Source: a virus. Taken from it: 64,000 bases of DNA. The translations under genes and the position numbers were made by a program. The notes under the pieces were generated by a model. That model ran no database searches, was not told the origin of the DNA, and saw nothing but the letters and a program-made list of their open reading frames with translations. Shown here one piece after another: positions 10,648-51,115 of this stretch (its first letter is position 1; each line of letters begins with the position of its first letter). Location: IMG/VR virus record IMGVR_UViG_3300030339_001052, positions 83,146 to 147,145 of that record; one strand, written 5' to 3'.

Positions 10648-11844
10648 GTGATCACATATAAATATAAACTATATAATAATGTCAAATGGAATATAAAACT
10701 CCATGATCTGTGCAGAAGCTCCGCTTTTGTTTGGAATCATTGTCTTGCTCTTCAAAAACGATATTATAGTTTATATGGATCTTATATTAACTCATCTAAA
10801 ATGCAATCCCATTTTGCAAAGAAGATTGTCCCTAAAAACGATTTTCTTAAATTAATGGGGTCGCAGACCATACAGGAAATCATACAAAGATTAGATACTT
10901 CTTATGTTCGTTTTTTTAAAAAGAAACAGAAAAGACCACCTAAATTTAAATCTGGTTTCAGTTTCTCTTCCTTTGTTTTTAAACAAGGTGGATACCTGTT
11001 GACAGAAAATAAACTTTACATTAATAAACTTAAACATAGTTTTAAGTTCTTTAAATCGAGAGATTATGGAACTCCTAAACTAATTAGACTTAAACGTGAT
11101 AAACTAGGTGACTTTTATTTAACCATCACATCAGAAGAAGATGTTAGAAATAAAAATTTTTACTCAAAGACACACGATGGTGCATCAGTAGGAATTGATT
11201 TCGGATTAAAAACATATCTAACGATGTCCGATGGAGAAAGTAGTATTTCCCCTTTATTCTTTAAAAAGGATATAAAGAAAATTAAAAAACTACATAATAA
11301 ACTCTCTTCTAAGGGTAGAGTTAAGACTGGAAAGCAGAAATATAGTACTAAGTGGAAAAAGATGGTCGATATTACCGTTTTATCTTCAAATGGGAATAAG
11401 GCAAGGAAAACCCTTGTCAGAGCCTATAAAAAGATAACAAATCGTCGTTCTGATTATCAGTATAAGCTTGCTCATGAACTTTGTCGAAAATACGATCTCA
11501 TTTTTTTAGAAACTCTGAATTTAGATGGAATGAAAAGACTGTGGGGAAGAAAAGTTAGTGACCTTTGTCACGCTTCATTTATTTATATATTAAAAGAAGT
11601 GTCTTTAAAATATAAAAATAATATTTATCAGATAGATCAATGGTACGCTTCTTCAAAAACTTGTAGTGAATGTGGAAACAAGCATAAAGGACTTAGATTA
11701 GAAGATAGAACTTTCATCTGTCCATCCTGCGGAGTGGAGATAGATAGGGATTTAAATGCAGCAATAAATATACATCGACAGGGCTTTGTCGAATACCTTA
11801 GTAGTTGTAAGACCCCCAGCTTGCTGGTGGCAAACTGCGCCTGA
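10648..11844 (+). CDS. tnpB: TnpB RNA-guided nuclease (IS605 OrfB family)
   Basis: 398 aa with GTG start (ITYKYKLY). An N-terminal helix-turn-helix region (about 1-110, including RPPKFKSG) precedes a RuvC-like core: GIDFGLKT (catalytic Asp about 183), FLETLNLDGM (Glu about 286), a zinc ribbon CSECG...CPSCG (about 339-360) and DRDLNAAINI (Asp about 366). All catalytic residues are present, so it should be active. Known relatives use an RNA from their own 3' end to cut DNA next to a short target motif. It inserts in the operon between Clp and the FEN nuclease and splits a small gene. Confidence 0.92.
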   Translation: MITYKYKLYNNVKWNIKLHDLCRSSAFVWNHCLALQKRYYSLYGSYINSSKMQSHFAKKIVPKNDFLKLMGSQTIQEIIQRLDTSYVRFFKKKQKRPPKFKSGFSFSSFVFKQGGYLLTENKLYINKLKHSFKFFKSRDYGTPKLIRLKRDKLGDFYLTITSEEDVRNKNFYSKTHDGASVGIDFGLKTYLTMSDGESSISPLFFKKDIKKIKKLHNKLSSKGRVKTGKQKYSTKWKKMVDITVLSSNGNKARKTLVRAYKKITNRRSDYQYKLAHELCRKYDLIFLETLNLDGMKRLWGRKVSDLCHASFIYILKEVSLKYKNNIYQIDQWYASSKTCSECGNKHKGLRLEDRTFICPSCGVEIDRDLNAAINIHRQGFVEYLSSCKTPSLLVANCA

Positions 11845-19402: not shown

Positions 19403-20827
19403 TTATAGGTATTTATTTATTAATTCCAATGCTTCATCTTTTGTTAAATCTGGATTTTCATACCAGGCATCTTGAATAACATCTAATAGTTCACCCATAA
19501 AAGGTGATGGCTTAACACCTAATCCAATTAGGTCACTCCCATTAATTGGTAAGTTTCTATTTGAATTATTTATTTTAGAAGATAAATTATCAATTCTATC
19601 TCTAAGAATACCTATTTGATTAGGCATTGATGCTTCAGCTGTATGCGATATATTATCGGCGTGAATCAAGTCCAAAACCTGTTCGATATTATCACCAACA
19701 GTAGCTTTAAACTTTCGTAATGTTTTATCTAATAATTTATTTCCGTCATCACCGCCTTGTTTTAAATACATATGATTTTTAACTCCGCAAGCAACTATAT
19801 CGATTATATCATTAGAATATTTTAAACGACTCATTATAGATCGCACTAATACTTCACTTTCTTTCTCATGCCCCAAGAAATGAACTTCACCATTTTCGTC
19901 TATCGTTTTAGTAATAACCTTACCAATATCATGAAATAAAGCCATTAACCTTGTTTCCAAAACAGGAGGAGTATTATCCAGTACAGACATAGTATGTCCG
20001 AATACATCATTAATATGATATTTATTTTGTTTCATCCCAATAGTAGGGATTAACTCTTCAACAATATAAGGTAATAGCCCAGTAACTTTCAATAACCGAA
20101 TACCTTTAGCTGGATTATCAAATAATAATATTTTATTTAATTCGTCAGAAATACGTTCATTTGAAATATTATTTAACAAATATGCATTGTTTCTCATTAC
20201 ACGAATAGTATCTAAATCCAACTTGAAATTATATTTAACTGTAAACCGAACTGCGCGAAGCATTCTTAACCCATCCTGTTTAAATATTTCATCTGCATTT
20301 GATGTTGTTCGGATGATACCATTTTTAATATCATCGATACCATAACCAGTTAAATCAAGTATTTCATTTGTTGAAACATTTTTTAGTAAAGAGTTGATTG
20401 TCAGATCACGACGAGAAACATCCACCTTTAAATCACCACCTACCACATCTGGTTTTCTTGAGTTAATATTATTATATGCTTCAGCCCTTGGAGCAACAAA
20501 TTCTAAATCAATATTTGGTAAATTGAATACATTGTTATTTAAAGATAATTTTGAAGTTCCAAAACGTGGATAAATAACAGGATTTGAGTCCTCTTTATAA
20601 TTGCCCAACTTGTTAGCAAGCCAAAATGAAAAGTTAATACCAGCATTGATATCTCCGTTAACTACAAAGTCAAGATCTTTAGCTGCCTTTCCCATCAACT
20701 CATCTCTCACTGCCCCGCCCGCCAAATAGATATTATTATCGTATTCGGTTCCAGCTATAAGATTTTTTAGGAAATCCAAGACTTCTTGTTCAAGTGTTCC
20801 TTCGGTTAAAACTTTTTTAATACTCAT
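19403..20827 (-). CDS. cca: CCA-adding tRNA nucleotidyltransferase with HD domain
   Basis: 474 aa, a usual size. N-terminal poly(A) polymerase head domain: YLAGGAVRDELMG and KDLDFVV (metal-binding DxD), then VSRRDLTINSLL (RRD nucleotide motif) and QDGLRMLRAVRFTVKYNF (ERxRxE-like helix). The HD domain has LMALFHDIGKV and FLGHEKES. It adds or repairs the CCA end of tRNAs from CTP and ATP. For a phage this maintains tRNAs cut by host defence nucleases. Its start overlaps the stop of the metallopeptidase gene. Confidence 0.92.
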   Translation of the reverse strand: MSIKKVLTEGTLEQEVLDFLKNLIAGTEYDNNIYLAGGAVRDELMGKAAKDLDFVVNGDINAGINFSFWLANKLGNYKEDSNPVIYPRFGTSKLSLNNNVFNLPNIDLEFVAPRAEAYNNINSRKPDVVGGDLKVDVSRRDLTINSLLKNVSTNEILDLTGYGIDDIKNGIIRTTSNADEIFKQDGLRMLRAVRFTVKYNFKLDLDTIRVMRNNAYLLNNISNERISDELNKILLFDNPAKGIRLLKVTGLLPYIVEELIPTIGMKQNKYHINDVFGHTMSVLDNTPPVLETRLMALFHDIGKVITKTIDENGEVHFLGHEKESEVLVRSIMSRLKYSNDIIDIVACGVKNHMYLKQGGDDGNKLLDKTLRKFKATVGDNIEQVLDLIHADNISHTAEASMPNQIGILRDRIDNLSSKINNSNRNLPINGSDLIGLGVKPSPFMGELLDVIQDAWYENPDLTKDEALELINKYL

Positions 20828-22038: not shown

Positions 22039-23514
22039 TTATGTTATTATTGATTCATATGGGTTAATTGGTAATATATCCTTAGAAAATAATTCAGTGC
22101 TCCAACGTCTACCCATTCTATATTCAGAATTCTCAACTAATATAAATTGTTCTTTATTATAACAATTCAATAACGTATCATTATATACCCAAATAGCTTC
22201 AATTTTATTTATTTCCCCATTTGATTTTGATTTTAATGCTCCCATTCTTATATTTAATTTTCTTGATGTTATTCCAATTTTATAATATTTACCATCATTA
22301 ATTTTTAAATAATACAATATAGCAGGTTTTTCCCCAATTTTGGGATTTTCAATAAATATTGTTGAGTTATAACCCCCAACTAATTTATTATCTTTAATCA
22401 ATTGTTCAATTCCACATTCAATACACCCTTGTCCCGATAAATGTTTTTGAGCTGATTTTGTAAATATCCCGTGCTCAGGACAACATATTTTAATTTTACT
22501 TTTTTTATTTTTATAAATTTTTTCGTTTTCTATTGGATATGTATATTTATCCCCATGTACGATTTTAATTTGTTCTATAGCATTAGCATAAGATTTTGTT
22601 CTATTTTTTGCCGAACTTTCCTTACCGCATTTGGGGCATCCACAGGTATTATTTAATAAAATTAAATTTCTGGCAATAGTCTCAAAATTACCATGTTCTG
22701 GACAATAAGCCAAAATATTGGTTTTAGTAAGTCCATGCCATTCTCCTATTAACTTTAATGTTAATCTATCCCCATGTTTATCAAAAACCCTTTTTTTTAA
22801 ATCATCAAAGCTTACAGGTGGTTTAGGTTTTCTATTTTTGATCGATTTATAAGCTGAAGATCTATTTTCACTCCAGCATTCCATACAACCATATTTACTA
22901 TTTAAATGTTTATCTGGTGATTGTGAAAATACTCCGTGTTCTGGGCAAATTATATCAACATGTATTTTTGCTGATATATATTCTACTAAAGAATAATCAA
23001 ATTTATTACCATGTTTTTTAACTGCATTTTCTATAAATTTTTGTTTTTCTGTTTCATTTTTATGATCTGTTTCTTTATGAATTTCTTTAAATGAAAAAGC
23101 ATAACACGATGGACACGGATACTCGGCGTTTAAATGATTTGTTGGTGATTGCTCAAATACTCCATGTTCTGGACATATAATTTTTACTTTTGTTTTGTAG
23201 TGTTGATAGTCAACCAAGGAATAGTCAAACTTATTATTATGTTTTAAATTTGCATTATTAATAAAAATATCTTTTTCAATAATTCTTGATTTTTTATTTT
23301 TATCATCAATAGCACATTTTGGGCATCCAAAGATATATCTTAAATGATGAGTTGGCGTTTGGGTAAAAATTCCATGATCTGGACAGATAATATCTACTGG
23401 AATTTTAGCTGTTTTAAAATTAACCAAAGAATAGTCAAATTTATTATCATATTTTAAATTTGCATTCTTAATAAACGTTGCTTTTCTAATTTCTATATTA
23501 TTACTTCTGGGCAT
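22039..23514 (-). CDS. zinc-repeat nuclease with C-terminal GIY-YIG-like domain (cassette 2)
   Basis: 491 aa. Five zinc repeats (starts like KYDNKFDYSLVNF, each with CPxHGxF and GCPxC) span residues 10-370, the same type as in the proteins at 3736-4839 and 36286-37572. The C-terminal 110 residues differ: LYYLKINDGKYYKIGITSRKLNIRM is a GIY-YIG/T5orf172-like start with the Arg, and NKEQFILVE supplies a Glu. So the DNA-binding array is shared while the nuclease module is swapped. Likely homing-type nuclease. Its ATG lies inside the small ribbon-helix-helix gene before it. Confidence 0.8.
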   Translation of the reverse strand: MPRSNNIEIRKATFIKNANLKYDNKFDYSLVNFKTAKIPVDIICPDHGIFTQTPTHHLRYIFGCPKCAIDDKNKKSRIIEKDIFINNANLKHNNKFDYSLVDYQHYKTKVKIICPEHGVFEQSPTNHLNAEYPCPSCYAFSFKEIHKETDHKNETEKQKFIENAVKKHGNKFDYSLVEYISAKIHVDIICPEHGVFSQSPDKHLNSKYGCMECWSENRSSAYKSIKNRKPKPPVSFDDLKKRVFDKHGDRLTLKLIGEWHGLTKTNILAYCPEHGNFETIARNLILLNNTCGCPKCGKESSAKNRTKSYANAIEQIKIVHGDKYTYPIENEKIYKNKKSKIKICCPEHGIFTKSAQKHLSGQGCIECGIEQLIKDNKLVGGYNSTIFIENPKIGEKPAILYYLKINDGKYYKIGITSRKLNIRMGALKSKSNGEINKIEAIWVYNDTLLNCYNKEQFILVENSEYRMGRRWSTELFSKDILPINPYESIIT

Positions 23515-23687: not shown

Positions 23688-23740
23688 CATAAAATATTAA
23701 TAAAATATCATATTTTCCTGAATTATTTTAATAAAAAAAA

Positions 23741-23764
23741 GAGTTTACCAGTTAAGATAAACTC
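23741..23764 (-). terminator. intrinsic terminator of the NAD operon
   Basis: GAGTTTA/TAAACTC stem (23741-23747 with 23758-23764), followed on the - strand by a T-tract (A-run 23732-23740). Closes the operon ending with the NAMPT-like gene. Confidence 0.7.
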
Positions 23765-23785
23765 TCCCATTATTTTTATTTATAG

Positions 23786-25453
23786 TTACGCTTTATTTAT
23801 CTTTTCCCGAATTTCTGTTAAAGTTGTCCTTGAGATAAACTCTCCATTTTCAAAGATGAGTTTTAATTCGCCTTGTCCTTCCTCTTCCCACGTACATTCA
23901 TTTTTCAACTTATATGACCCATCAGAATCTTTATAAACTTGAAGTAAACCTTTAGCTGACTTTTTTAGCCCACGGTCTGTAACTGGATCTTTAAATATAT
24001 TAACTCCAATTGTTTCAATCTCATTTGTTAAATCATTTATTTTTTCGATTTCGATAAATGTGGATTTTACAGCCCCTCCTTGATTATCGCGTGTACAGTA
24101 ACCCATTGAAAATGATCCAGTTCCAAGCGTTATATTAGTAGTCGCAAAGCCTTTTTCTTTTAGTCTCTTACATATTTGTTCTGCCCTGTCCAGTGTAATG
24201 GCATCTCCGTAAACGCACCCGATAAATTTTGAAAGAACTTTAAAACCTTGATCATTTATATTACCTCCAAATATATCCCAAAGTAATTCAACTAACCCTT
24301 TATTCTCAGATATTGGTTCTATTTGGTTCCATGTACAATCAAGATATCCAAATCCTTTTGGTGTAAGTTCAAAATACACTTTATCAGATGTAACAATAAA
24401 TTTAGCCCCATCTTTATTCTCATGAATATTCATTAAAGTGTAAACTTCTTTATGTGCTTCTGAATCAATAACTAAATCAGATGATTTAAAATCTACTTGG
24501 TATGCGTTTCCACAGATAATATCCACTGGATTCCCCGAATCAGGGCGGATAATTAACTTACCATCACGAGCAAGAATTGATTCTTTTAATTCTGGTAAAA
24601 ATTTTGTCACAACTTGCCAAAGATCATATTGGTCTGATACTACAGATAATAATCCAGTTGGGAATATTTTGATAAGCCTTTTAAACCCATCTATCTCATT
24701 TTCTTTTCCATAGGATGTCATACAGCTATGTTCAGAGGCTGGTATACTGAATCCAATATTCCTATCACCATAATAATAAGCTACCGATTGTAATGCTGGA
24801 ATAGTATCAGTTCCCCAAAATGAGGTTAAAAATCCCATACTTGAACTAATTGCAGCTTCAGGATGTTGCATTCCGCGAAAACTGAAATCGTGGGCTTGAA
24901 AGTTTACTCCAAATAAATTTTCTTTATCAGTTTCTTCAGCATTTTTTAGTAAAATTTGTTTATAAGCATAAGCCATAGATGCAGAGTGTATAGTTTTCCA
25001 AATTAAACTAGAAACTAAGGTCTCAAGAAAATTAGTTAGCCAAAAGAAATCAGGGTGAGTATTACATATTGTTAGCATTGGGATATTTTCTCCAATTATA
25101 GTACCTTCTGGTAAAGCTTTAACCCTGATTGGTAAATAGCCTAAATCATATAATTTTTCAAAATGTGTAACATCAAAATCAGTACTAAGATATTGTGATA
25201 AAAATTCTTTAGCCTCACCAATTACTTTTTCTTTTGGTTGTCCAAAAAAATTGTTGTCATATAAGTCTTTAATATATTGGATCGTATATTGAATACCGAA
25301 TACAACTATTTTCTTTGCCTGATCTGGCATTCTGGCTACATTTCTGGTAGTATAGTTAGAATATACTAAACTGGTACCTTCGGTGTACATTTTTACATGA
25401 GAAGTCTTGTATCCATCTTCCATTAGAAGAGGATTTTGAATTAATTTTGTCAT
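23786..25453 (-). CDS. NAMPT-like nicotinamide transferase (NadV or NARP1 Namat)
   Basis: 555 aa, slightly longer than NAMPT. Clear family motifs: DGYKTSH near the start, FSFRGM (about 197), SIPASEHSCMTSYGKE (catalytic His about 245), VVSDQYDLW, LIIRPDSGNP and LGTGSFSMG. NAMPT joins nicotinamide to PRPP to give NMN. The NARP1 enzyme Namat is a homologue that uses ADP-ribose pyrophosphate and gives NAD+ directly. The operon has a PRPP-synthetase-like gene and a macro domain but no NMN adenylyltransferase, which favours the NARP1 reading; substrate choice cannot be read from the sequence. Last gene of the operon. Confidence 0.92.
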   Translation of the reverse strand: MTKLIQNPLLMEDGYKTSHVKMYTEGTSLVYSNYTTRNVARMPDQAKKIVVFGIQYTIQYIKDLYDNNFFGQPKEKVIGEAKEFLSQYLSTDFDVTHFEKLYDLGYLPIRVKALPEGTIIGENIPMLTICNTHPDFFWLTNFLETLVSSLIWKTIHSASMAYAYKQILLKNAEETDKENLFGVNFQAHDFSFRGMQHPEAAISSSMGFLTSFWGTDTIPALQSVAYYYGDRNIGFSIPASEHSCMTSYGKENEIDGFKRLIKIFPTGLLSVVSDQYDLWQVVTKFLPELKESILARDGKLIIRPDSGNPVDIICGNAYQVDFKSSDLVIDSEAHKEVYTLMNIHENKDGAKFIVTSDKVYFELTPKGFGYLDCTWNQIEPISENKGLVELLWDIFGGNINDQGFKVLSKFIGCVYGDAITLDRAEQICKRLKEKGFATTNITLGTGSFSMGYCTRDNQGGAVKSTFIEIEKINDLTNEIETIGVNIFKDPVTDRGLKKSAKGLLQVYKDSDGSYKLKNECTWEEEGQGELKLIFENGEFISRTTLTEIREKINKA

Positions 25454-25481
25454 TTTATTTTAGTTTTTTTATAATTTTAAT

Positions 25482-26438
25482 TTAATAATTAGATAATAAT
25501 TTACTTGGGTGAACTGAGTTCACGCCGATTGATTTATATTTTTCAAGCACTTGGTGGTCATCATCAACAACCATACAATCACATACATTTAACTTAAGTT
25601 TTTTAATTAGCTGTTGTAGAAATACGTGTTTGTACTTACGGTTTCCAACAAAGTATATGTTTTCCATTTTGATAAAATTTGCATTCCAATAAAGCCATTC
25701 CATTTTTTCGTTATTAGCAATACTATTTGGGGAAGCGCTGACAACATAAATTTCTTTACCGCTATCAGATAGTTTTTTAATTTTTTCAATAACTTCTTTT
25801 ACTGGTTTCCCTTTCAGGAAAACCGAATATTGAACGAAGTCAATATTACCATATGTATCAGCTTGTAAATTCTGATATTCAGCAAGGGTTCCGTCCAAAT
25901 CCACAAATATATGACTGTCAGTGAAGTAGTCAACCTGTTCAAACTCATCCGCTAACAGTTTTAATTTCACAACAGATACTTGTAGTTTATATGCCTTATC
26001 AATGATAGCATCGGCTTTTACAAAACGTTCACCATATTCATACCTATATTGGTTTCTTTCAATACATACTTCAACTGGTGTATTGATAAAAACAACCTTG
26101 ATATGATAATCTAACTTTTTTAATTCAGCAATGATATTAACAGTATAGTTATTATTAATACCACCACCATCCATAACCAAATTGAATCCTCTTTCAGCAA
26201 CTTCAAACACCTTTTCTTTTGCCAATTTCACACATTCTTCATGAATTAACTCTGGGTGTTCTGGGTCATAGTCTGGATGATTTAATCTAATTTCATCTGC
26301 TGAAACCAATACATATTGGTTTTCTTGCAAAATAAAAATTTTACCTAGTGAACAGCTGTTAACAACTGAAAGTTTGGATTCTATAAGTTTAGTTTTCCCA
26401 CTTCCTGGCAATCCAAGCATAAATATTGCTTCTTTCAT
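25482..26438 (-). CDS. polynucleotide kinase/phosphatase-like: P-loop kinase + HAD
   Basis: 318 aa. N-terminal kinase has Walker A GLPGSGKT (about 9-16) and a DGGGINNN region typical of small kinases. The C-terminal HAD phosphatase has DLDGTLAEY (about 182), VVSASPN (motif II) and VVDDD (motif IV). The kinase-then-HAD order is that of T4 Pnkp, which repairs 5'-OH and 3'-phosphate RNA ends. It overlaps the PRPP-synthetase-like gene by 4 nt. A role in phosphorylating ADP-ribose-type metabolites is also conceivable because of the operon. Confidence 0.8.
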   Translation of the reverse strand: MKEAIFMLGLPGSGKTKLIESKLSVVNSCSLGKIFILQENQYVLVSADEIRLNHPDYDPEHPELIHEECVKLAKEKVFEVAERGFNLVMDGGGINNNYTVNIIAELKKLDYHIKVVFINTPVEVCIERNQYRYEYGERFVKADAIIDKAYKLQVSVVKLKLLADEFEQVDYFTDSHIFVDLDGTLAEYQNLQADTYGNIDFVQYSVFLKGKPVKEVIEKIKKLSDSGKEIYVVSASPNSIANNEKMEWLYWNANFIKMENIYFVGNRKYKHVFLQQLIKKLKLNVCDCMVVDDDHQVLEKYKSIGVNSVHPSKLLSNY

Positions 26439-27262
26439 AGTTTTAAATTAAATATTTTTACTCGTTCATTTTCAATATTACATCTGCTGTCAGTTGTAAA
26501 TATCATTTCAAATTCTTTTAATAAGTCTTCAACTGGATCACTAAAACCACCGTTATTTAAAACTCCGTGAGAAATTGCTAGATAACACTTGTTTTTAATC
26601 TGTGTTTTTATTTTCAAAAATGTTCGGCCACCCAAAGCAATATCATCTAAAATCAAAACAGTTTTATTTTCATCAAATACAGGAACTTTTGTTGTAATTT
26701 CACCATTATCTCTGGATTTTGAACACGACTCAATTTGTCCTTGAAAATTAATTTTCTTACATAATTTAAATATTTTTTTGTAAGAACCAGCATCGGTTGC
26801 GAGAATGATCATATCTTGTTCAGCAATGTCATTCTTGTTTAAAATATAATCTAAAACATTCTCAACGAATTCCGAATTATCAATCACCTCACAATTATTT
26901 AATAATGCTGGAGTAACCTCCGAATGAGGATCGAAGACATACACTTTATTTAATTCCATCGAATTAATTAAGTTACAAACAGTTTTCAGGCTGAAACATT
27001 CGCCAACACCAAAATTTCTATCCGCTTGTTGATATGCCATATATGGAATAAACAAATTTATTTTAACACGATTATTATCTTTTTTAATTGTATCAACAAC
27101 CAATAATAGAAACATAATATCATCTGAAGATTTTAAATTCGCTTTTATTGTTATATCTTCAATAATTCTAATTTTTAATTGAAAATGAATTTCACCTCCT
27201 GGAAATTTCCAAGCCTTATACTGCAAATTCTCGCAGATCCCGTTCGTTAAATCTAATACCAT
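26435..27262 (-). CDS. PRPP synthetase-like phosphotransferase (Prs or NARP1 Adps)
   Basis: 275 aa, a little shorter than Prs (about 310). FPGGEIHFQL (for FSDGE), IPYMAYQQADR (for PYxxYxRQDR), FDPHSE (for DLHS) and VLILDDIALGGRTF (the PRPP-binding loop) are in family order. Prs moves pyrophosphate from ATP to ribose 5-phosphate; the homologue Adps of NARP1 does so on ADP-ribose. The loop departs from the DDxxxTGGT consensus, which could reflect a different substrate. Followed directly by the kinase/HAD gene and the NAMPT-like gene. Confidence 0.88.
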   Translation of the reverse strand: MVLDLTNGICENLQYKAWKFPGGEIHFQLKIRIIEDITIKANLKSSDDIMFLLLVVDTIKKDNNRVKINLFIPYMAYQQADRNFGVGECFSLKTVCNLINSMELNKVYVFDPHSEVTPALLNNCEVIDNSEFVENVLDYILNKNDIAEQDMIILATDAGSYKKIFKLCKKINFQGQIESCSKSRDNGEITTKVPVFDENKTVLILDDIALGGRTFLKIKTQIKNKCYLAISHGVLNNGGFSDPVEDLLKEFEMIFTTDSRCNIENERVKIFNLKL

Positions 27263-27291
27263 TATTTTATTTATTTTAAATTATTATTTTT

Positions 27292-27684
27292 TTAAACTAA
27301 ACATGGCTTAATCCATGATTTTTCTTCATCATCTTTGATATATATTATTTCAGATTTACCTAAATGTGTTACAACCTCATAGTAATCTGTGTTTATATTT
27401 GTTATATATTTTTTAGCTTCCAACGTAATAGCAAAAAAACAATCGACTGGAAACCAATATTCTTTTAAATGTTTTTCATCTTCAATTGAATAAAAACACA
27501 TCCCACTTCTAATATATGTTATTTTTAATAAACGAACGCATTCAAATTCACAGTCAAAATAATAAAACTCACCACCAACCTTCAGATATTCTTTTGACAT
27601 ATACTTATGTGGCTTTATTTTAATTTTTTTCTCGTCATTAAAAATAAACATCATTTTATCAACATCATTTAAATCTATTTCCAT
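27292..27684 (-). CDS. hypothetical protein, 130 aa
   Basis: Start chosen at MEIDLND (ATG 27684); a longer frame from 27738 would run into the upstream small gene. Beta-rich soluble protein with no recognised motif. Member of the NAD operon. Confidence 0.7.
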   Translation of the reverse strand: MEIDLNDVDKMMFIFNDEKKIKIKPHKYMSKEYLKVGGEFYYFDCEFECVRLLKITYIRSGMCFYSIEDEKHLKEYWFPVDCFFAITLEAKKYITNINTDYYEVVTHLGKSEIIYIKDDEEKSWIKPCLV

Positions 27685-27697
27685 AACTATTCTGTTT

Positions 27698-27880
27698 TTA
27701 AAATGTTTTTTTGAAATTACAAGTAAAGCGAATAACATCTATCCTATCATGATAATCATCTGTTTTATAATCGGAGCAGTGTTCACAACCAGCAGTATAA
27801 CCCGCACTACCAATAAATTTACCATCCACGTTTGGACATATTTCTGGTGTCCCATAAGGACTTAATTCATATTTTTTCAT
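27698..27880 (-). CDS. small cysteine-containing protein, 60 aa
   Basis: Four cysteines (EICPNV, GCEHCSDY, FTCNF) could bind a metal. Starts 1 nt after the radical SAM gene ends. No family recognised. Confidence 0.65.
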   Translation of the reverse strand: MKKYELSPYGTPEICPNVDGKFIGSAGYTAGCEHCSDYKTDDYHDRIDVIRFTCNFKKTF

Positions 27881-27881
27881 C

Positions 27882-28922
27882 TTAAATTATTTCTTTATAT
27901 TCAGTTTTTGGTAAATTTCCACTTAAAATAGCATTTCCACAGGTGATTAATCCATTATCTTCATCATAGCTTGGTACAAATACAATAACATCAAAACCAA
28001 CACGTTTTAACTCAGTTTCTTTTTGTTTATAGGGTGTAAATGCATCATATCCACCTGTTGTTTCAATATTGTTTTCAATACAACTGTTTGTTTTATGTAA
28101 TGGTGTTAGTTTGCATATGAATTTATTAGGATCAAACAATTTAAGTAATACATCAGCATCCAACGTATATTCATCGGCCAATGCAAAATTCAAAGCATAT
28201 TTTCTTCCAACTGGTTCTGGTAACATTTTACCTATTTCAGATATTTCTTCTAATGACAGACTATTATTAGAGAACATATCATTCCTTTGTTCGTTATCGG
28301 TTGAGTTTATTGAAAATTGTAACCCAGCATCCCCATTATATAATTTATTTTTAATATCATTACACCAAATCAATAAAAATTTAATCAAATTTTTATTCGC
28401 TTTTGGAAGCATTGTTGATATTACTGGGTGAATTGCACCAGAACCTTCCCAAAAATCATAGATATTTCTATGTAAACAAGTTGCAAGATCCAGTACGTTA
28501 CCATTCCACGTCGGCTCTCCCATACGAGCCAGATGTAAATTTAATCGTTTAGTTGATTTAATCTCTGGGTGTAAAGCTAAAGCAGATAATATTTGATCCA
28601 GCATATCATGATAGGTAGCATTTAATCCAGGCCCAACCTTTGGAACATCACAAAACTTGCAATTCATAGAGCAACCATATTGGGTGCTTATGGTTATAAC
28701 AAATTTTTCTGTTAACGGCATTATTTCACCATTTGGAACACCATTCAATTCTCTTGAAATACCAAGAAAATCAGCTTTTATATTAGCGTTTTTACCATAA
28801 TCACCAACAGTTAAAAACTCTAACAAGCCTTTTTCACCTTGCATAATACAAATGTTTCCCGTTGGGACTTCAATGTTTCTTAAAACTTTATTAATCATTA
28901 ATTTATTTTTTATATAAGACAA
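27882..28922 (-). CDS. RlmN/Cfr-like radical SAM enzyme
   Basis: 346 aa. CSMNCKFC (about residue 100) is the CxxxCxxC iron-sulfur motif; HLARMGEPTWN matches the RlmN block MGMGEPLLN; near the C-terminus DNGLITCGNA supplies the cysteine that in RlmN forms the methyl-cysteine intermediate. RlmN methylates A2503 of 23S rRNA and A37 of some tRNAs at C2. The phage enzyme probably modifies RNA similarly. Its 5' end overlaps the macro-domain gene by 20 nt. Confidence 0.83.
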   Translation of the reverse strand: MSYIKNKLMINKVLRNIEVPTGNICIMQGEKGLLEFLTVGDYGKNANIKADFLGISRELNGVPNGEIMPLTEKFVITISTQYGCSMNCKFCDVPKVGPGLNATYHDMLDQILSALALHPEIKSTKRLNLHLARMGEPTWNGNVLDLATCLHRNIYDFWEGSGAIHPVISTMLPKANKNLIKFLLIWCNDIKNKLYNGDAGLQFSINSTDNEQRNDMFSNNSLSLEEISEIGKMLPEPVGRKYALNFALADEYTLDADVLLKLFDPNKFICKLTPLHKTNSCIENNIETTGGYDAFTPYKQKETELKRVGFDVIVFVPSYDEDNGLITCGNAILSGNLPKTEYKEII

Positions 28923-29430
28923 GTGTTACATAACAATCTTTTAATTCTATCTCTATAATTTGACGAATGATATTTATATCACCACCAGCAAGGCCACCAC
29001 AAATTAAAGGCATTACAACTTTCAATCCTTTAAATTTATAATTAATTTTTCTAAGACATAAAGTTAATGCTTCATAGTCTGCAGGTCTATCAGTCCAATC
29101 TAAATGATTTTTACCATAGTGAAATTGCGAATAGCAATTAACGACATATAAATCACGTCCTTTAGTACTATCTGGTAGCCAAGTATTAGGTTCGCCATCA
29201 ACAATAGTGAATAATTGCCAATCAATTTGACCAAGCTTATTAATATCACCTTTACCAGTTAATTCCATTGGAAACGTATCTGTACCAAAATACTTCTTGA
29301 ATGGTATTACTATTCCAGCCCCCTGGGTACAAAAAGCGTTAACTCCTTGAAGTGTAACATCATACTGTTCACTAAATATTTCTTTAAATAAATCTCCCTC
29401 TATTTCTTTATATTTTTCTTTATTCTCCAT
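28903..29430 (-). CDS. macro domain protein (ADP-ribose binding)
   Basis: 175 aa, a single macro domain. EIEGDLFKE (strand 1), GVNAFCTQGAGIVIPFKKYF (the ligand loop with Asn and glycines) and VMPLICGGLAGGDINIIRQII (phosphate-binding loop) are the family blocks. Most like Poa1p/ALC1-type macro domains, which remove ADP-ribose from proteins or hydrolyse ADP-ribose 1''-phosphate. In this operon it may supply or recycle ADP-ribose for NAD+ remaking. Overlaps genes on both sides. Confidence 0.85.
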   Translation of the reverse strand: MENKEKYKEIEGDLFKEIFSEQYDVTLQGVNAFCTQGAGIVIPFKKYFGTDTFPMELTGKGDINKLGQIDWQLFTIVDGEPNTWLPDSTKGRDLYVVNCYSQFHYGKNHLDWTDRPADYEALTLCLRKINYKFKGLKVVMPLICGGLAGGDINIIRQIIEIELKDCYVTLVLYKK

Positions 29431-35160: not shown

Positions 35161-36293
35161 TGTTTAATTTCTTCATTTAATATTTCATCAATTATTTTAT
35201 TAGAATCAAATGGAAGGCTTTTGGTTGATATTATATTAATATCATCAATTGGCATTTTCCTAATCTTAAGTAATAATTCTTTTACAAATAGTGGATCAAC
35301 TTTTTCTGGTAAATTTGATTTATCATACAATTCCTGTAAACCAGCGATATCGCGTTCTGCATCTTCAATTATTTTATCTAAAGGAACTTCACCACGTTTG
35401 ATTGAAAGTAAATAGTCGGCATTTGGGCGTTTAACGGTAAAAGTGCCTGTAGTGGCAATCGAAACCCCCACATCGATGAGCCTCCGACAATGCAATAGGT
35501 TCTTACCATCTATAAATGAACCACTTAGAGTTTGTCCGTGCTTTTTAACATCAACATATCTTTGGGTGTTCCTATTTTTTAACCATTCATTATACTCCTT
35601 CCACTCCTTCATGAACTTTGAATATGCTTCAACATTATAATATATCATCACAAATGGCGTTTCTCCTTTTTTAATAGATGACAATCTAACCTCATTACTA
35701 TTTTCACCAATTATTCCTCTATAACCATCATTATTGTAATCATAATAAACGGCATAACAATCTTTCATATGATCCAATCGAACTAAGCCACATTTTTCTT
35801 GTAATAGCCCATTGTCGTTCAAATATTCTTTAAAAGAATATGTTTTACCATTATTATAAAAATATATAAAATCTAAAGGTGTCTTTAATTTATAATCATT
35901 TTCATTGTAATTTAATTTTTTACCCAACGAATTTGCCTTTGAAATCTGACTGTAACCATATGAAGTAAAGGCATTTGCGCATTTTTTTGTTACAAACACA
36001 TCCCTATTTTCACGTATTAGTTCAAATTGAGGTGATGTATGTAAAATATATTCATCATCAGAAAATAGCAATTCTAAACAGGTCGGATTTCCGACAGAAC
36101 ATAATTCTAAAAATCGACGAACCTCATAGTACGTTTCATCTTTAGTTACATTAATTTGCTCGGTATAGCCAAATGATAATAAATTATCAATAGGGCATAA
36201 AAAAATACCCTTTTTATCTAAATCACTGGTTTCAATATTTGTACCATAAGCAACGCTACCAACAATAGCTTCAAAAATTAAATTTTCAATCAT
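35157..36293 (-). CDS. RlaP-type nucleotidyltransferase (RNA-repair associated)
   Basis: 378 aa. EAIVGSVAYGTNIETSDLDKKGIF near the N-terminus has the GS and DxD of pol-beta nucleotidyltransferases in the RlaP arrangement (here split: GSVAYG, SDLDKK). The middle has RRFLELCSVGNPTCLELLF, another family block. RlaP proteins accompany RNA ligases and are thought to add or process RNA ends. It starts 8 nt inside the end of the nuclease cassette 3, which may have inserted upstream of it. Confidence 0.82.
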   Translation of the reverse strand: MIENLIFEAIVGSVAYGTNIETSDLDKKGIFLCPIDNLLSFGYTEQINVTKDETYYEVRRFLELCSVGNPTCLELLFSDDEYILHTSPQFELIRENRDVFVTKKCANAFTSYGYSQISKANSLGKKLNYNENDYKLKTPLDFIYFYNNGKTYSFKEYLNDNGLLQEKCGLVRLDHMKDCYAVYYDYNNDGYRGIIGENSNEVRLSSIKKGETPFVMIYYNVEAYSKFMKEWKEYNEWLKNRNTQRYVDVKKHGQTLSGSFIDGKNLLHCRRLIDVGVSIATTGTFTVKRPNADYLLSIKRGEVPLDKIIEDAERDIAGLQELYDKSNLPEKVDPLFVKELLLKIRKMPIDDINIISTKSLPFDSNKIIDEILNEEIKQ

Positions 36294-37572
36294 AAATTTC
36301 TTTATTTAATATTTCTTCTATATTATTAAATTCCGTATAAGGAATTCTAATTAACTTAATATTATTATCAAGGCAATATTGGGTTTTTATTTTATCATTT
36401 CTTTGAATTGATTCAAAACCTTCTATTCCACCAAATCTATCTACTTGTTTATAATGTTGTTCCCCATCGTATTCAATACAAGTATTATATTTAGGAATAT
36501 AAAAATCAAATGGGAGAGAATATTTATATCTACAATCATCAAATTTATGTTCCCGAATAAATTTAAGTTTAAAATTTGTTAATGTTTGATTTACAATTTT
36601 TTCACCTTTACTTTCATTACATTTAGGACATCCCTGACCTTTTAAATGATTATGAGGTGTTTGCCAAAATTCTCCGTGAATAGGGCATATTATTTTAACC
36701 TTTATATTGGTTCCTTTATATTCTACCTTTGAATAATCATATTTATCTCTATGAATTAGTTTTGTTTTTTCAATAAAATAATTATAATCCATATAACTAC
36801 CTGAACACTTAGGGCATCCTTTACCATCTAAATGACTATTTGGTGTTTGCCAAAATTCGCCATGAATCGGGCATGTTATATCTACTTTAATTATTGAATT
36901 TATGTAATCAACATTTTCATATGTGAATTTATTATTATGTTTTTCTTTAGATTTTTCAATGAATGTATCTAAATCCATAAAGTTTCCGCCACATTTAGAA
37001 CATCCATAACCAATCATGTGTGAATTAGCTTTTTGATAAAACTCCCCATGTTCTGGGCAAACTATACATACGTCACTCTCACTATTTACATAATTAGTCT
37101 TGGAATAATCATATTTAAAATTATGTTTTTTATTAGATTTTTTAATAAAGTATTCAGTATTATTAGTTTTGCTTAAAGATCTATTAACATTTCCACACAT
37201 AGAACATCCCCTACCTTGTAAATGATCACTTGGTGTTTGCCAAAATTCACCATGTATAGGACAAATGATACATACTTTAGTTTGAGCATTTTTATAATCT
37301 ATCTTAGTATAATTATATTTATCTCCATGTATCACAATTGCTTTAGAGATAAAAATATCATTGTTGTGCCTAAGTTTATCACTTTTTAATTTTATTCCAC
37401 ATTTGTTACACCCATTACCCACCAAATGGGAATTTGGTAATTGTAAAAATTCGCCATGTTCTGGACAAATTATGATTACTTTGATATTTGATTTTACATA
37501 TTCAACCAGTGAATAATCATATTTGTCACCATGTTTTGCTTTTGCTTTTTTAATAAATTCATCTTTCGTCAT
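36286..37572 (-). CDS. zinc-repeat nuclease, EDxHD/Vsr-like (cassette 3)
   Basis: 428 aa. Five zinc repeats (KHGDKYDYSLVEY, then IHGDKYNYTKIDY and so on, each with CPxHGEFxQxPxxHL and GCxKC) fill residues 10-315. The C-terminus is a PD-(D/E)XK-type nuclease: LPFDFYIPKYNTC, IEYDGEQHYK, and QRNDKIKTQYCLDNN, nearly the same as in the protein at 3736-4839. Its 3' end overlaps the RlaP start by 8 nt. Homing-type nuclease inferred. Confidence 0.82.
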   Translation of the reverse strand: MTKDEFIKKAKAKHGDKYDYSLVEYVKSNIKVIIICPEHGEFLQLPNSHLVGNGCNKCGIKLKSDKLRHNNDIFISKAIVIHGDKYNYTKIDYKNAQTKVCIICPIHGEFWQTPSDHLQGRGCSMCGNVNRSLSKTNNTEYFIKKSNKKHNFKYDYSKTNYVNSESDVCIVCPEHGEFYQKANSHMIGYGCSKCGGNFMDLDTFIEKSKEKHNNKFTYENVDYINSIIKVDITCPIHGEFWQTPNSHLDGKGCPKCSGSYMDYNYFIEKTKLIHRDKYDYSKVEYKGTNIKVKIICPIHGEFWQTPHNHLKGQGCPKCNESKGEKIVNQTLTNFKLKFIREHKFDDCRYKYSLPFDFYIPKYNTCIEYDGEQHYKQVDRFGGIEGFESIQRNDKIKTQYCLDNNIKLIRIPYTEFNNIEEILNKEIYD

Positions 37573-43108: not shown

Positions 43109-44095
43109 TTAAATAATATGCTCTTTTCTATTTCCTTTAGCATCAAAAATAAGAAATTCATGCGGAAAGCCACCTCTGATAACGGCATCTTCTTTCATTT
43201 TAATTAAATCAACGTTTAATTTTATTGTGTAAGTTGATTTTACTTCGTATATTTTATTCTCACTTTTAATATAAATGTCTGGAAAGTATCTTCTATTCTT
43301 ATTTACTTTTAAATCGTAAAACATAATTTTTCCTATTATATTTTCGATTTCTTTATTACCTATCACAATATCATCTTCTACATATCCATTGGCTAACAAA
43401 TATTGTAACCCATAATGTTCATAACCTTGATAACTTACTATTCTTCCAGATGGAAGAGTATATTTTTTTGCACATATTCCAGTTAAAAATTTTTTATCCA
43501 TAATTTCCGCAACTTGACTAATATTAGTAATATTGTCTCCATATTTTAATTGTAATTTCTTAATTATTTTATTCTTAATCTTAGTAGACTGGAGCGCATA
43601 TTCGACACCGTAGTGTAATTTACAAGTAGTGATTTTCTGTTTTTTAATAATCTCAGATTGTGATATATTATCAACACCATAAACCCTAAGTGAAGATTGT
43701 TTTTTCTGTTCTTTAATTTCTTTAGATTGCGAAATATTATCAACACCATATTTTTTTATTGCTGATTGTTTCTTTTTTTCTTTAATTTCTTTTAATTGAG
43801 AGAAATTAGTAACCCCAAATTCATCTTTTAAATTTCTATTTGTTTTTCTCATTTTACATTTACTAGAACATACAAATCCCTTTTTACAGTTCATATATTG
43901 TTTAAAAGGTACATCCACAATTTTTCCACATTCAGAGCAAACACACTTAACTCTTTCAGATGTTGAAGGGTTTAGATTACTTGAGGTTACAGTTATAATT
44001 TCGCCATAAACACAATTATACCCAATTTTTTTATAATAGCTAATATTTCTTCCATATATTTTTATTTGATGCGTTTGTTCTATTAGATTATCCAT
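43109..44095 (-). CDS. homing-type nuclease with NUMOD-like repeats
   Basis: 328 aa. A zinc-like CVCSECGKIV...FVCSSKCK part (about 50-83) is followed by repeats such as FGVTNFSQLKEIKEKKKQ, YGVDNISQSKEIKEQKKQ and another YGVDNISQ, short DNA-binding modules of selfish endonucleases. The C-terminal PD-(D/E)XK core is RRYFPDIYIKSENKIYEVKST (in two parts: PDIYIK and YEVKS). A type different from the three zinc-repeat cassettes and without a ribbon-helix-helix gene. It sits between two operons. Confidence 0.78.
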   Translation of the reverse strand: MDNLIEQTHQIKIYGRNISYYKKIGYNCVYGEIITVTSSNLNPSTSERVKCVCSECGKIVDVPFKQYMNCKKGFVCSSKCKMRKTNRNLKDEFGVTNFSQLKEIKEKKKQSAIKKYGVDNISQSKEIKEQKKQSSLRVYGVDNISQSEIIKKQKITTCKLHYGVEYALQSTKIKNKIIKKLQLKYGDNITNISQVAEIMDKKFLTGICAKKYTLPSGRIVSYQGYEHYGLQYLLANGYVEDDIVIGNKEIENIIGKIMFYDLKVNKNRRYFPDIYIKSENKIYEVKSTYTIKLNVDLIKMKEDAVIRGGFPHEFLIFDAKGNRKEHII

Positions 44096-50083: not shown

Positions 50084-51115
50084 CTATTCGAAATTATTTA
50101 TTTTAGCCAACAACCAATCTCTACCTTTTTTTGATATACCACCTGTAACGGCTTTTGGTTCCAAATTATTCCCAATCAAAACATCTGTTTCTTCTTTAAT
50201 AATATCATTAGCTAACCATCTCAAGAAATCACCCATCTTCTCAATAAACAAAACTCCGTTACCGTATATTTTTTCAAGCCCTTGGTTTAATCTATTTTCA
50301 GTAACAGCATACTCAATAAATTCATTAATTGAATTCATTCTATCTATATCGATTGCAACCAATTCCTTCGTTTTTGAAATTTTACTTTTTTCGGCTTTTA
50401 CTTTAAACCTAAGTTTTTCACCAGTTTCAGTAAAGAAAGTGTAAACTATGCCTTCTCCCCTACCTTCAACACCCATAGCGTCACCAAATGGGCATTTAAT
50501 ACCAACTTGGGTAGTTATTTCAGTTAGTTTATCTAAAGCTGCCTGAGGCTCGTTAAAATCAATTTCAACTTCAAACGTTGGGAAGTCATATATGTTATAA
50601 ATATCATTTTCAGGTGAACGCAATAGTTTAATTTGATCTATTGGCGCATATTTATTATCACCTTTTGAATTATCTTCATATGATCGCTTAATGTCATATA
50701 TAACAAATATTCTTGGAAGCTGACATACGGCCATTCCAGCCTGTATCCCTTTTCCTGCAAATTCACCAAAAATAGTTATGTAATCATATCCTTTGAAATC
50801 AATTTTATTTAGTAGATCTTTAAAAACATCTTTTTTTGATTCTAACGTGAAAGCAAAATTATAATTATCATTCTTTAAAGTCAATATATTGTCTTTTGAT
50901 TGAGCCCAGATTTCACCATTTTTATTCATTGAAATCCCTCCGTTTGTTCCATCAATTTTTATTGTACCTGAAACTTTGATAATTGGAAGAGGAATTGTTG
51001 TATCATACATACAGTCCCCATTTTCATCCTTACCAATGTATTGCGTTCTATGTTTAATTGTTGAATAAATTTCCCTAAATTGACCTATGTCCGAGAATTT
51101 GCAAAGTTTTTTCAT
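50084..51115 (-). CDS. Rnl2-family RNA ligase
   Basis: 343 aa. TIKIDGTNGGI (about 55-60) has the nucleotidyl-lysine motif I; GEFAGKGIQ is motif III, GEGIVYTF motif IV and RFKVKAEKS motif V. A C-terminal helical domain of about 80 residues follows. It seals nicks in RNA, joining a 3'-OH to a 5'-phosphate with ATP. Together with RlaP and the kinase/HAD protein it forms an RNA-repair set. Abuts a coiled-coil gene upstream by 1 nt. Confidence 0.88.
   Translation of the reverse strand: MKKLCKFSDIGQFREIYSTIKHRTQYIGKDENGDCMYDTTIPLPIIKVSGTIKIDGTNGGISMNKNGEIWAQSKDNILTLKNDNYNFAFTLESKKDVFKDLLNKIDFKGYDYITIFGEFAGKGIQAGMAVCQLPRIFVIYDIKRSYEDNSKGDNKYAPIDQIKLLRSPENDIYNIYDFPTFEVEIDFNEPQAALDKLTEITTQVGIKCPFGDAMGVEGRGEGIVYTFFTETGEKLRFKVKAEKSKISKTKELVAIDIDRMNSINEFIEYAVTENRLNQGLEKIYGNGVLFIEKMGDFLRWLANDIIKEETDVLIGNNLEPKAVTGGISKKGRDWLLAKINNFE

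What the first reader, a model, noticed from the sequence alone, without database searches (positions are those of the whole stretch)
23786..29430. Probable NARP1-type NAD+ rebuilding operon with macro domain
A PRPP-synthetase-like gene and a NAMPT-like gene lie in one operon, with a kinase-HAD gene, a macro (ADP-ribose-binding) domain and an RlmN-like enzyme. No NMN adenylyltransferase (HxGH motif) is in the window, which the classical NadV route would need. The two enzymes of NARP1 (Adps and Namat) are known to look like Prs and NAMPT but rebuild NAD+ from ADP-ribose and nicotinamide, countering defences that deplete NAD+. The macro domain in the same operon is a new partner that could feed ADP-ribose. 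The PRPP loop departs from consensus (LDDIALGGRT).
Basis: partly seen in the sequence, partly recalled or inferred. Interest (0 to 1): 0.85.

Follow-up and report, generated by a model that had tools for sequence, protein, structure and literature searches.

The report
Phage NAD+ rebuilding operon with macrodomain
A large bacterial virus carries the two known genes that rebuild the coenzyme NAD+ from its breakdown product ADP-ribose, with a macrodomain gene in the same operon that probably frees ADP-ribose; such genes recur beside this pathway in many unrelated phages and in Bacteroidota chromosomes, which suggests a wider ADP-ribose recycling pathway.

Summary
In detail: at 23786-29430 (- strand) a tight, co-directional gene block ends in an intrinsic terminator and encodes macro domain, radical-SAM, two small ORFs, a Prs-like protein, a kinase-HAD (polynucleotide kinase type) and a NAMPT-like protein. 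The NARP1 reading passes the sequence tests available. The NAMPT-like protein falls with Namat, not Nampt (split supported 99%), and keeps 19 of 20 NAD+-contact residues of the solved SPbetaL1 Namat, including the clamp GSFSMGYCTRD. The Prs-like protein falls with phage Adps, not Prs; its odd loop LDDIALGGRTF is a variant of the Adps loop DDICDGGRTF. No NMN adenylyltransferase is found in the whole 147 kb record. The macro gene is not a chance neighbour: 9 of 58 dereplicated Namat-seeded loci have one between or within 2 kb of the pair, against 1 in 552 kb further out (p = 1.6e-4), and the window macro's clade is almost entirely NARP1-linked. One paper already proposed this role for a macro protein in Pakpunavirus Adele, so the idea is not new; its breadth is. 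Bacteroidota chromosomes carry NrtR-Adps-(ARG/NADAR/macro/KptA)-Namat operons, pointing to general ADP-ribose salvage. The macro substrate is untested.

The parts
23786..25453 (-). Namat (nicotinamide ADP-ribose transferase), 555 aa; selectivity-clamp motif GSFSMGYCTRD
   Evidence: best PDB match SPbetaL1 Namat 9w5x/9w5w, 404 bits against 231 for mammalian NAMPT; 19/20 NAD+-contact residues; tree
26435..27262 (-). Adps (ADP-ribose pyrophosphate synthetase), 275 aa; loop LDDIALGGRTF
   Evidence: phrog_619; 42% to the Adps of L090, 19-27% to true Prs; groups with Adps, Prs split off at 99
28903..29430 (-). macro domain protein, 175 aa, ALC1/TARG1/Poa1p-like; Asn31 and Gln102 at the sites of the ADPR-binding Asn and of the catalytic Lys80 (DarG) / Gln85 (SCO6735)
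   Evidence: phrog_335; AlphaFold model pLDDT 88 matching TARG1, BT1257, Poa1p, DarG; residues
25482..26438 (-). polynucleotide kinase-phosphatase type protein (P-loop GLPGSGKT, HAD DLDGT), 318 aa, between Adps and Namat
   Evidence: phrog_505 5e-22, Pfam AAA_33 and HAD_PNKP
27882..28922 (-). radical SAM protein (CSMNCKFC), RlmN-like core only; likely start ATG at about 28898
   Evidence: phrog_24834 4e-159; 68% to a gene of Bacteroides phage Versailles without NARP1 nearby
27292..27738 (-). unknown ORF, 148 aa, directly upstream of Adps
   Evidence: no family, no relative in the loci fetched
27698..27880 (-). unknown small ORF, 60 aa, Cys-rich
   Evidence: no family, no relative
23737..23768 (-). 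intrinsic terminator after Namat (13-pair stem, T-run)

Best explanation
This is a NARP1 operon of a large, probably Bacteroidota-infecting phage. When host defence enzymes cut NAD+ to nicotinamide plus ADP-ribose, Adps puts a pyrophosphate from ATP on ADP-ribose, and Namat joins the resulting ADPR-PP to nicotinamide, giving NAD+ directly without NMN or NMNAT (core: inferred from family membership, about 0.92 likely). The macro domain protein in the same operon cleaves ADP-ribose off a derivative that Adps cannot use, such as ADPR-1''-phosphate made by NAD+-phosphorolysing RES toxins, decayed ADPR-PP, or ADP-ribose bound to DNA, RNA or protein, and so enlarges the ADP-ribose pool fed to Adps (inferred from recurrent linkage and fold, about 0.55 likely). 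The kinase-HAD, the RNA ligase and the CCA enzyme elsewhere in the window are an RNA-repair set against tRNA-cutting defences (inferred).
For: Namat: closest solved relative is SPbetaL1 Namat; 19 of 20 NAD+-contact residues identical, including Ser190, Ala362, Phe392, Tyr396 and Thr398-Arg-Asp, where Nampts carry Gly190, Gly362 and mostly GG(A/G); tree. Adps: tree and loop. No NMNAT in the record. Macro: 9 of 58 dereplicated Namat-seeded loci have one within 2 kb or between the pair, 1 further out in 552 kb, p = 1.6e-4; Adps-macro-Namat order in Vibrio phages K460, JSF10, Chester and IMG/VR loci, Adps-Namat-macro in Pakpunavirus, Saclayvirus, Otagovirus; 6 of 6 IMG/VR loci found with the window macro as query have Adps 0 to about 0.5 kb upstream; window macro in an 11-row clade (97) with 9 NARP1-linked other members. 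Precedents: RyDEP feeds ADPR to NARP1; Poa1p-type macros make ADPR from ADPR phosphates and MbcT makes ADPR-1''-P.
Against: No biochemistry. The window macro carries Gln28 where Poa1p and nearly all its relatives have His, so it may be inactive or specialised. In the window the macro is 1.6 kb and three genes from Adps, not adjacent. Cellulophaga phage phi17:2 has a 39% identical macro gene without NARP1 in the 25 kb around it, and most NARP1 loci (49 of 58) have no macro gene nearby. Namat can also use PRPP in vitro (PMC12774641), so NMN formation is not excluded. Arg40 of the clamp is Ala here, though Arg41 follows.
Confidence: 0.62

Rival explanations
1. NARP1 is right but the macro domain acts on its own account: it strips ADP-ribose from phage DNA or proteins modified by host ADP-ribosyltransferases (DarT-type defence). 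It sits in the operon because both are early counter-defence genes; the ADP-ribose it frees is a side effect.
For: The model matches TARG1, DarG and Poa1p about equally. Gln102 aligns with DarG Lys80, and in SCO6735 the Gln at that site is catalytic for thymidine-linked ADP-ribose. phi17:2 has such a macro without NARP1 nearby.
Against: Macro genes in NARP1 loci are clustered at the pair itself, not spread over the neighbourhood, and Bacteroidota operons combine Adps-Namat with several other ADPR-releasing or ADPR-phosphate enzymes and a regulator of the ADPR-sensing NrtR type, which points to the product rather than to one substrate.
Confidence: 0.25
2. Classical NadV route: the pair makes PRPP and NMN, and a host NMN adenylyltransferase finishes NAD+.
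For: Annotation names (phrog_448, PRK09198, phrog_619); Namat keeps PRPP activity in vitro.
Against: Clamp signature and NAD+-contact residues; both trees; contrast with phage CBB, whose Nampt has the GKLVHPEKGRD motif and an NMNAT gene nearby.
Confidence: 0.07
3. The macro and kinase-HAD genes belong to an RNA-repair unit (end healing by kinase-HAD, macro clearing ADPR phosphates left by 2'-phosphotransferases) and share the operon with NARP1 only for timing.
For: Kinase-HAD between Adps and Namat, CCA enzyme downstream, RNA ligase at 50084-51115; PNK-type genes next to NARP1 in MiniLon, JSF10, Chester, K5; Bacteroidota operons hold KptA.
Against: No KptA/Tpt1 in this record; RNA ligase shows no enrichment near NARP1 (p = 0.68) and PNK only a weak one (p = 0.03).
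Confidence: 0.12

Closest known systems
NARP1 of Bacillus phage SPbetaL1 (Adps + Namat; PDB 9W5X, 9W5W; PMC12774641)
   Same: Adps and Namat pair, catalytic core, selectivity-clamp motif GSxxxxxxTRD with aromatics at positions 3 and 7
   Different: kinase-HAD inserted between the pair, macro and radical-SAM genes upstream; clamp Arg40 replaced by Ala-Arg; Adps loop DDIALGGRTF
NARP1 plus macro of Pseudomonas phage Adele / Pakpunavirus (PMC12846349)
   Same: Poa1p-like macro gene in the NARP1 block; the authors proposed that it frees ADP-ribose for NARP1
   Different: order Adps-Namat-macro; His of Poa1p kept there, Gln in the window; one genus described, here shown in several unrelated lineages
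NARP1 plus RyDEP of mycobacteriophage DyoEdafos (PMC13232231)
   Same: an extra operon gene that turns an ADP-ribose derivative into ADPR and so feeds Adps-Namat; shown in vitro there
   Different: RyR-domain glycosidase acting on 2'/3'cADPR, unrelated to macro domains
NrsAB of Vibrio phage ICP1 (PMC11559045)
   Same: Adps-Namat pair; overcomes NAD+ depletion by the SIR2-HerA system Nezha in vivo
   Different: two genes only, no macro gene in the stretch examined
Nampt + NMNAT pair of Pectobacterium phage CBB (NARP2-like)
   Same: phage NAD+ salvage from nicotinamide
   Different: Nampt-type motif GKLVHPEKGRD, NMNAT gene nearby, no Adps in the stretch seen; the window has neither the motif nor an NMNAT

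Membership tests
NARP1 | Namat: Nampt-like enzyme with the clamp signature GSX-Phi-X-Phi-X-Phi-TRD, aromatics at positions 3 and 7 | tested here: met
   GSFSMGYCTRD, Phe at 3, Tyr at 7 (signature from PMC12774641)
NARP1 | Namat NAM/ribose catalytic residues (Asp13, Tyr15, Phe189, Arg192, Asp215, Arg306, Asp308 in SPbetaL1 numbering) | tested here: met
   all identical
NARP1 | additional stacking residue in the clamp loop (Arg at 40, or the next residue) | tested here: inconclusive
   Ala at 40, Arg at 41; relatives have Lys-Arg
NARP1 | Adps gene, distinct from true Prs, next to Namat | tested here: met
   one gene away; Prs outgroup split at 99; DDIxxGGRTF loop. Only three Prs sequences were used, two of them partial
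NARP1 | NAD+ formed from ADPR, ATP and nicotinamide | not testable with these tools
   needs purified proteins
NARP1 | protection against NAD+-depleting defence | not testable with these tools
   needs a phage or plasmid assay
NARP2 / NadV route (Nampt + NMNAT) | NMN adenylyltransferase encoded with Nampt | tested here: not met
   no PF01467 in the 147 kb record, 14 of 14 control genomes ring; the record may be incomplete
NARP2 / NadV route (Nampt + NMNAT) | Nampt residues Gly190, Gly362 and GG(A/G) at the clamp | tested here: not met
   Ser, Ala, GSF
Macro domain, ALC1/TARG1/Poa1p-like class | macro fold with the ADPR-binding Asn | tested here: met
   model pLDDT 88.4; Foldseek TARG1 9e-9, BT1257, Poa1p, DarG; Asn31
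Poa1p (ADPR-1''-phosphatase) | His23 of Poa1p | tested here: not met
   Gln28 in the window; His in nearly all NARP1-linked relatives
DarG / TARG1 | catalytic Lys80 / Lys84 | tested here: not met
   Gln102 at that column; same exchange as the catalytic Gln85 of SCO6735
RlmN | full-length RlmN similarity | tested here: not met
   only about 79 residues of the radical-SAM core match, far below the cut-off
Polynucleotide kinase-phosphatase | P-loop kinase and HAD phosphatase domains in one chain, as in T4 Pnkp | tested here: met
   phrog_505, residues 1-308; activity not tested

The most novel reading that the evidence does not exclude
NARP1 is the last step of a general ADP-ribose salvage pathway, not only an answer to NADases: phages and Bacteroidota chromosomes couple Adps-Namat to a changing set of ADP-ribose-releasing enzymes (macro, NADAR, ARG, RyDEP, with KptA as a source of ADPR phosphate), in bacteria next to an NrtR-type regulator of the kind known to sense ADP-ribose. 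The window's macro protein is one such front end.
Probability: 0.5. Interest if true: 0.75.

Novelty: new variant of a known kind. Interest (0 to 1): 0.52.

Why it matters
NARP1 is, to my knowledge, the only described route that makes NAD+ straight from ADP-ribose. If macro, NADAR and ARG enzymes routinely feed it, phages can recycle not just the product of simple NADases but also the products of ADP-ribosyltransferase and NAD+-phosphorolysing defences. The chromosomal Bacteroidota operons make the open question of what bacterial NARP1 is for (left open in PMC12774641) directly testable, with a regulator of the ADPR-sensing type and candidate donor enzymes named.

Tried and rejected
IMG/VR scan with the kinase-HAD protein: no relatives. 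IMG/VR scan with the mixed macro alignment: not conserved enough, not run. Placing the phage by a large ORF of the record: no match among 50,697 phage records. NADAR near NARP1 in phages: seen, but too few for significance (p = 0.09). RNA ligase link: rejected as not enriched (p = 0.68). A true Prs/Nampt reading: rejected on trees and residues. Radical SAM as a NARP1 part: rejected; its only close relative (68%) sits in Bacteroides phage Versailles without NARP1 nearby. Sigma-70 promoter hits: not above shuffles, not used. The full text of Osterman et al. 2024 (the original NARP1 paper) did not come up in the library searches, so its own account of neighbouring genes could not be checked for macro genes.
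Full report
WHAT IS THERE. The window is bases 83146-147145 of a 147,145-base IMG/VR virus record with 28% G+C. On the - strand a co-directional block reads macro (28903-29430), radical SAM (27882-28922), a 60-aa ORF, a 148-aa ORF, a Prs-like gene (26435-27262), a kinase-HAD gene (25482-26438) and a NAMPT-like gene (23786-25453). Gaps are 30 bases or less, or small overlaps, and a terminator-like hairpin follows at 23768-23737. The macro gene is in turn overlapped by an upstream ORF, so the start of the transcription unit is not fixed. Downstream lie a homing-endonuclease-like gene, a DUF5661 protein and a CCA-adding tRNA nucleotidyltransferase. The host is not known. The 68% radical-SAM relative in a Bacteroides phage, the macro relatives in Cellulophaga phages and the low G+C suggest Bacteroidota (inference).

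THE NAMPT-LIKE PROTEIN IS A NAMAT. Its best match among solved structures is 9w5x/9w5w, 404 bits, against 231 for the best mammalian NAMPT; these two entries are the Namat structures of PMC12774641. That paper lists 20 NAD+-contact residues and a signature, GSX-Phi-X-Phi-X-Phi-TRD with aromatics at positions 3 and 7, which separates Namat from Nampt. The window has 19 of the 20 residues and GSFSMGYCTRD. True Nampts aligned alongside (mammal, phages 44RR2.8t and CBB, four IMG/VR loci without Adps) carry Gly at 190 and 362 and GG(A/G)LLQ or GKL at the clamp. The single difference is Arg40 to Ala, with Arg at 41; the nearest relatives have Lys-Arg there, and the paper reports that the next residue stacks when Lys or Tyr occupies the site. 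In a 75-row tree the five Nampt rows split off at 99 and the window lies among the Namats.

THE PRS-LIKE PROTEIN IS AN ADPS. It is 42% identical to the Adps-like gene of L090 and 19-27% to three true Prs sequences, which split off at 99 in the tree. Where Prs has DDMIDTGGT, the group has DDICDGG(R/A/G)TF; the window has DDIALGGRTF. Lys182, Arg184 and the Asp206-Asp207 pair are invariant in a 20-row alignment. The group includes an ICP1 relative of NrsA (L106); the NrsAB system restores NAD+ and overcomes the Nezha defence in vivo (PMC11559045). No NMN adenylyltransferase family member is in the record, while all 14 control genomes ring.

THE MACRO GENE IS A RECURRENT PARTNER. An IMG/VR scan with the window macro found six relatives, and all six have Adps 0 to about 0.5 kb upstream on the same strand. 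From the other side, among loci found only through Namat, dereplicated at 80% and without loci chosen for a macro gene, 9 of 58 have a macro gene between the pair or within 2 kb, while 552 kb of sequence at 2-10 kb holds one (p = 1.6e-4). Cultured phages show it too: Adps-macro-Namat in Vibrio phages K460, JSF10 and Chester; Adps-Namat-macro in Pakpunavirus K5, Saclayvirus-type Rocket, Otagovirus PPSC2 and, split, Lahexavirus LAh_6. Others lack it nearby: Taipeivirus, a Staphylococcus phage, ICP1, Listeria LMTA-34, Felixounavirus BPSELC-1, MiniLon. On the Adps tree the macro state needs 11 changes, so it was gained or lost many times. The window macro sits in an 11-row clade (97) in which all others but phi17:2 are NARP1-linked.

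WHAT THE MACRO PROTEIN MAY DO. The model (pLDDT 88) matches TARG1, B. thetaiotaomicron BT1257, Poa1p and DarG; sequence profiles agree. The ADPR-binding Asn is kept (Asn31). At the column of DarG Lys80 / TARG1 Lys84 the family mostly has Gln (Gln102 in the window), the same exchange as the catalytic Gln85 of SCO6735, which cleaves thymidine-linked ADP-ribose (PMC9411070). Poa1p His23 is kept in nearly all relatives but is Gln28 in the window. Poa1p-type enzymes make ADP-ribose from ADP-ribose phosphates, and the RES-type toxin MbcT makes ADP-ribose-1''-phosphate from NAD+ (PMC8883491; also PMC9503650). A defence that phosphorolyses NAD+ would give Adps an unusable substrate that a macro phosphatase could rescue; this, dead-end decay of ADPR-PP, and ADP-ribosylated macromolecules are the three substrates to test. 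Which one applies is not decided here.

PRIOR ART. PMC12846349 (Adele, December 2025) already states that a downstream Poa1p-like macro protein may release ADP-ribose for NARP1. PMC13232231 shows another operon enzyme, RyDEP, doing so from cADPR signals. PMC9503650 reports NADAR genes beside phage NAD+ salvage genes and macro domains in 40-56% of medium and jumbo phages. New here are the window member, the breadth and statistics of the macro link, and its mirror in bacteria.

BACTERIAL MIRROR. A scan of bacterial genomes with the Adps alignment gave at least 539 relatives; the best 80 are nearly all Bacteroidota. In co-directional runs with Adps, 44 of 80 hold Namat, 47 NADAR and 17 a macro gene; 42 of 43 full-length Namats carry a GS(F/Y) clamp motif. 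In the loci scanned in detail the gene upstream is NUDIX plus NrtR winged helix (one tested by Pfam), and others are ADP-ribosylglycohydrolase, KptA and MacroD-like macro. In 99 genomes of one order, 8 have such a Namat, one of them the starting genome, so it is sporadic. This makes ADP-ribose salvage the simplest common theme (inference).

RNA REPAIR. The kinase-HAD gene, an RNA ligase (50084-51115) and the CCA enzyme look like an RNA-repair set. PNK-type genes occur next to NARP1 in several phages, with weak enrichment (p = 0.03); RNA ligase shows none. I treat this as a shared counter-defence neighbourhood.

LIMITS. Loci were found through patterns of window-like sequences, so frequencies are not population estimates; the Prs outgroup is small; trees are quick ones with SH-aLRT support only; the record may be incomplete; no activity was measured.

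Noticed in passing
L116-L195 (genome contigs, e.g. L121:5183-11678, L125:5233-11657, L147:5195-9291): Bacteroidota chromosomes carry NrtR-like - Adps - (ARG, NADAR, macro, KptA) - Namat operons; an apparent chromosomal ADP-ribose salvage operon.
   Followed up: partly
L095:322-999 (G000:80322-80999), just outside the window: A second, divergent macro-family protein (225 aa, phrog_335) in the same phage record.
   Followed up: partly
L089:9535-12841, L088:179-2025, L058:8980-10957: Namat genes in two or three pieces with other ORFs in or beside the gaps, as if split by introns or homing elements; in L058 the break falls at the selectivity-clamp motif.
   Followed up: no
L078:2-2081: A Nampt-type protein (motif GGLLLQQHNRD) next to a gene with an Adps-type loop (CDGGATF); a mixed pair that fits neither NARP1 nor the classical route.
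   Followed up: no
L096 (NC_073678.1, Pseudomonas phage PPSC2): Product labels near NARP1 look shifted by one gene: 'macro domain protein' on Namat, 'ribose-phosphate pyrophosphokinase' on the kinase gene, while the real Adps and macro are called hypothetical.
   Followed up: yes
window 50084-51115, 19403-20827: RNA ligase and CCA-adding tRNA nucleotidyltransferase; with the kinase-HAD gene a likely RNA-repair set.
   Followed up: partly
window 22039-23514, 36286-37572, 43109-44095, 10648-11844: Several homing-endonuclease-like genes and a transposase in one phage window, one directly after the NARP1 terminator.
   Followed up: no
PDB 9ke8/9keo: A solved 'nicotinamide phosphoribosyltransferase' that falls among Namats in the tree but has a non-aromatic clamp (GAQTYQRNTRD).
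   Followed up: no
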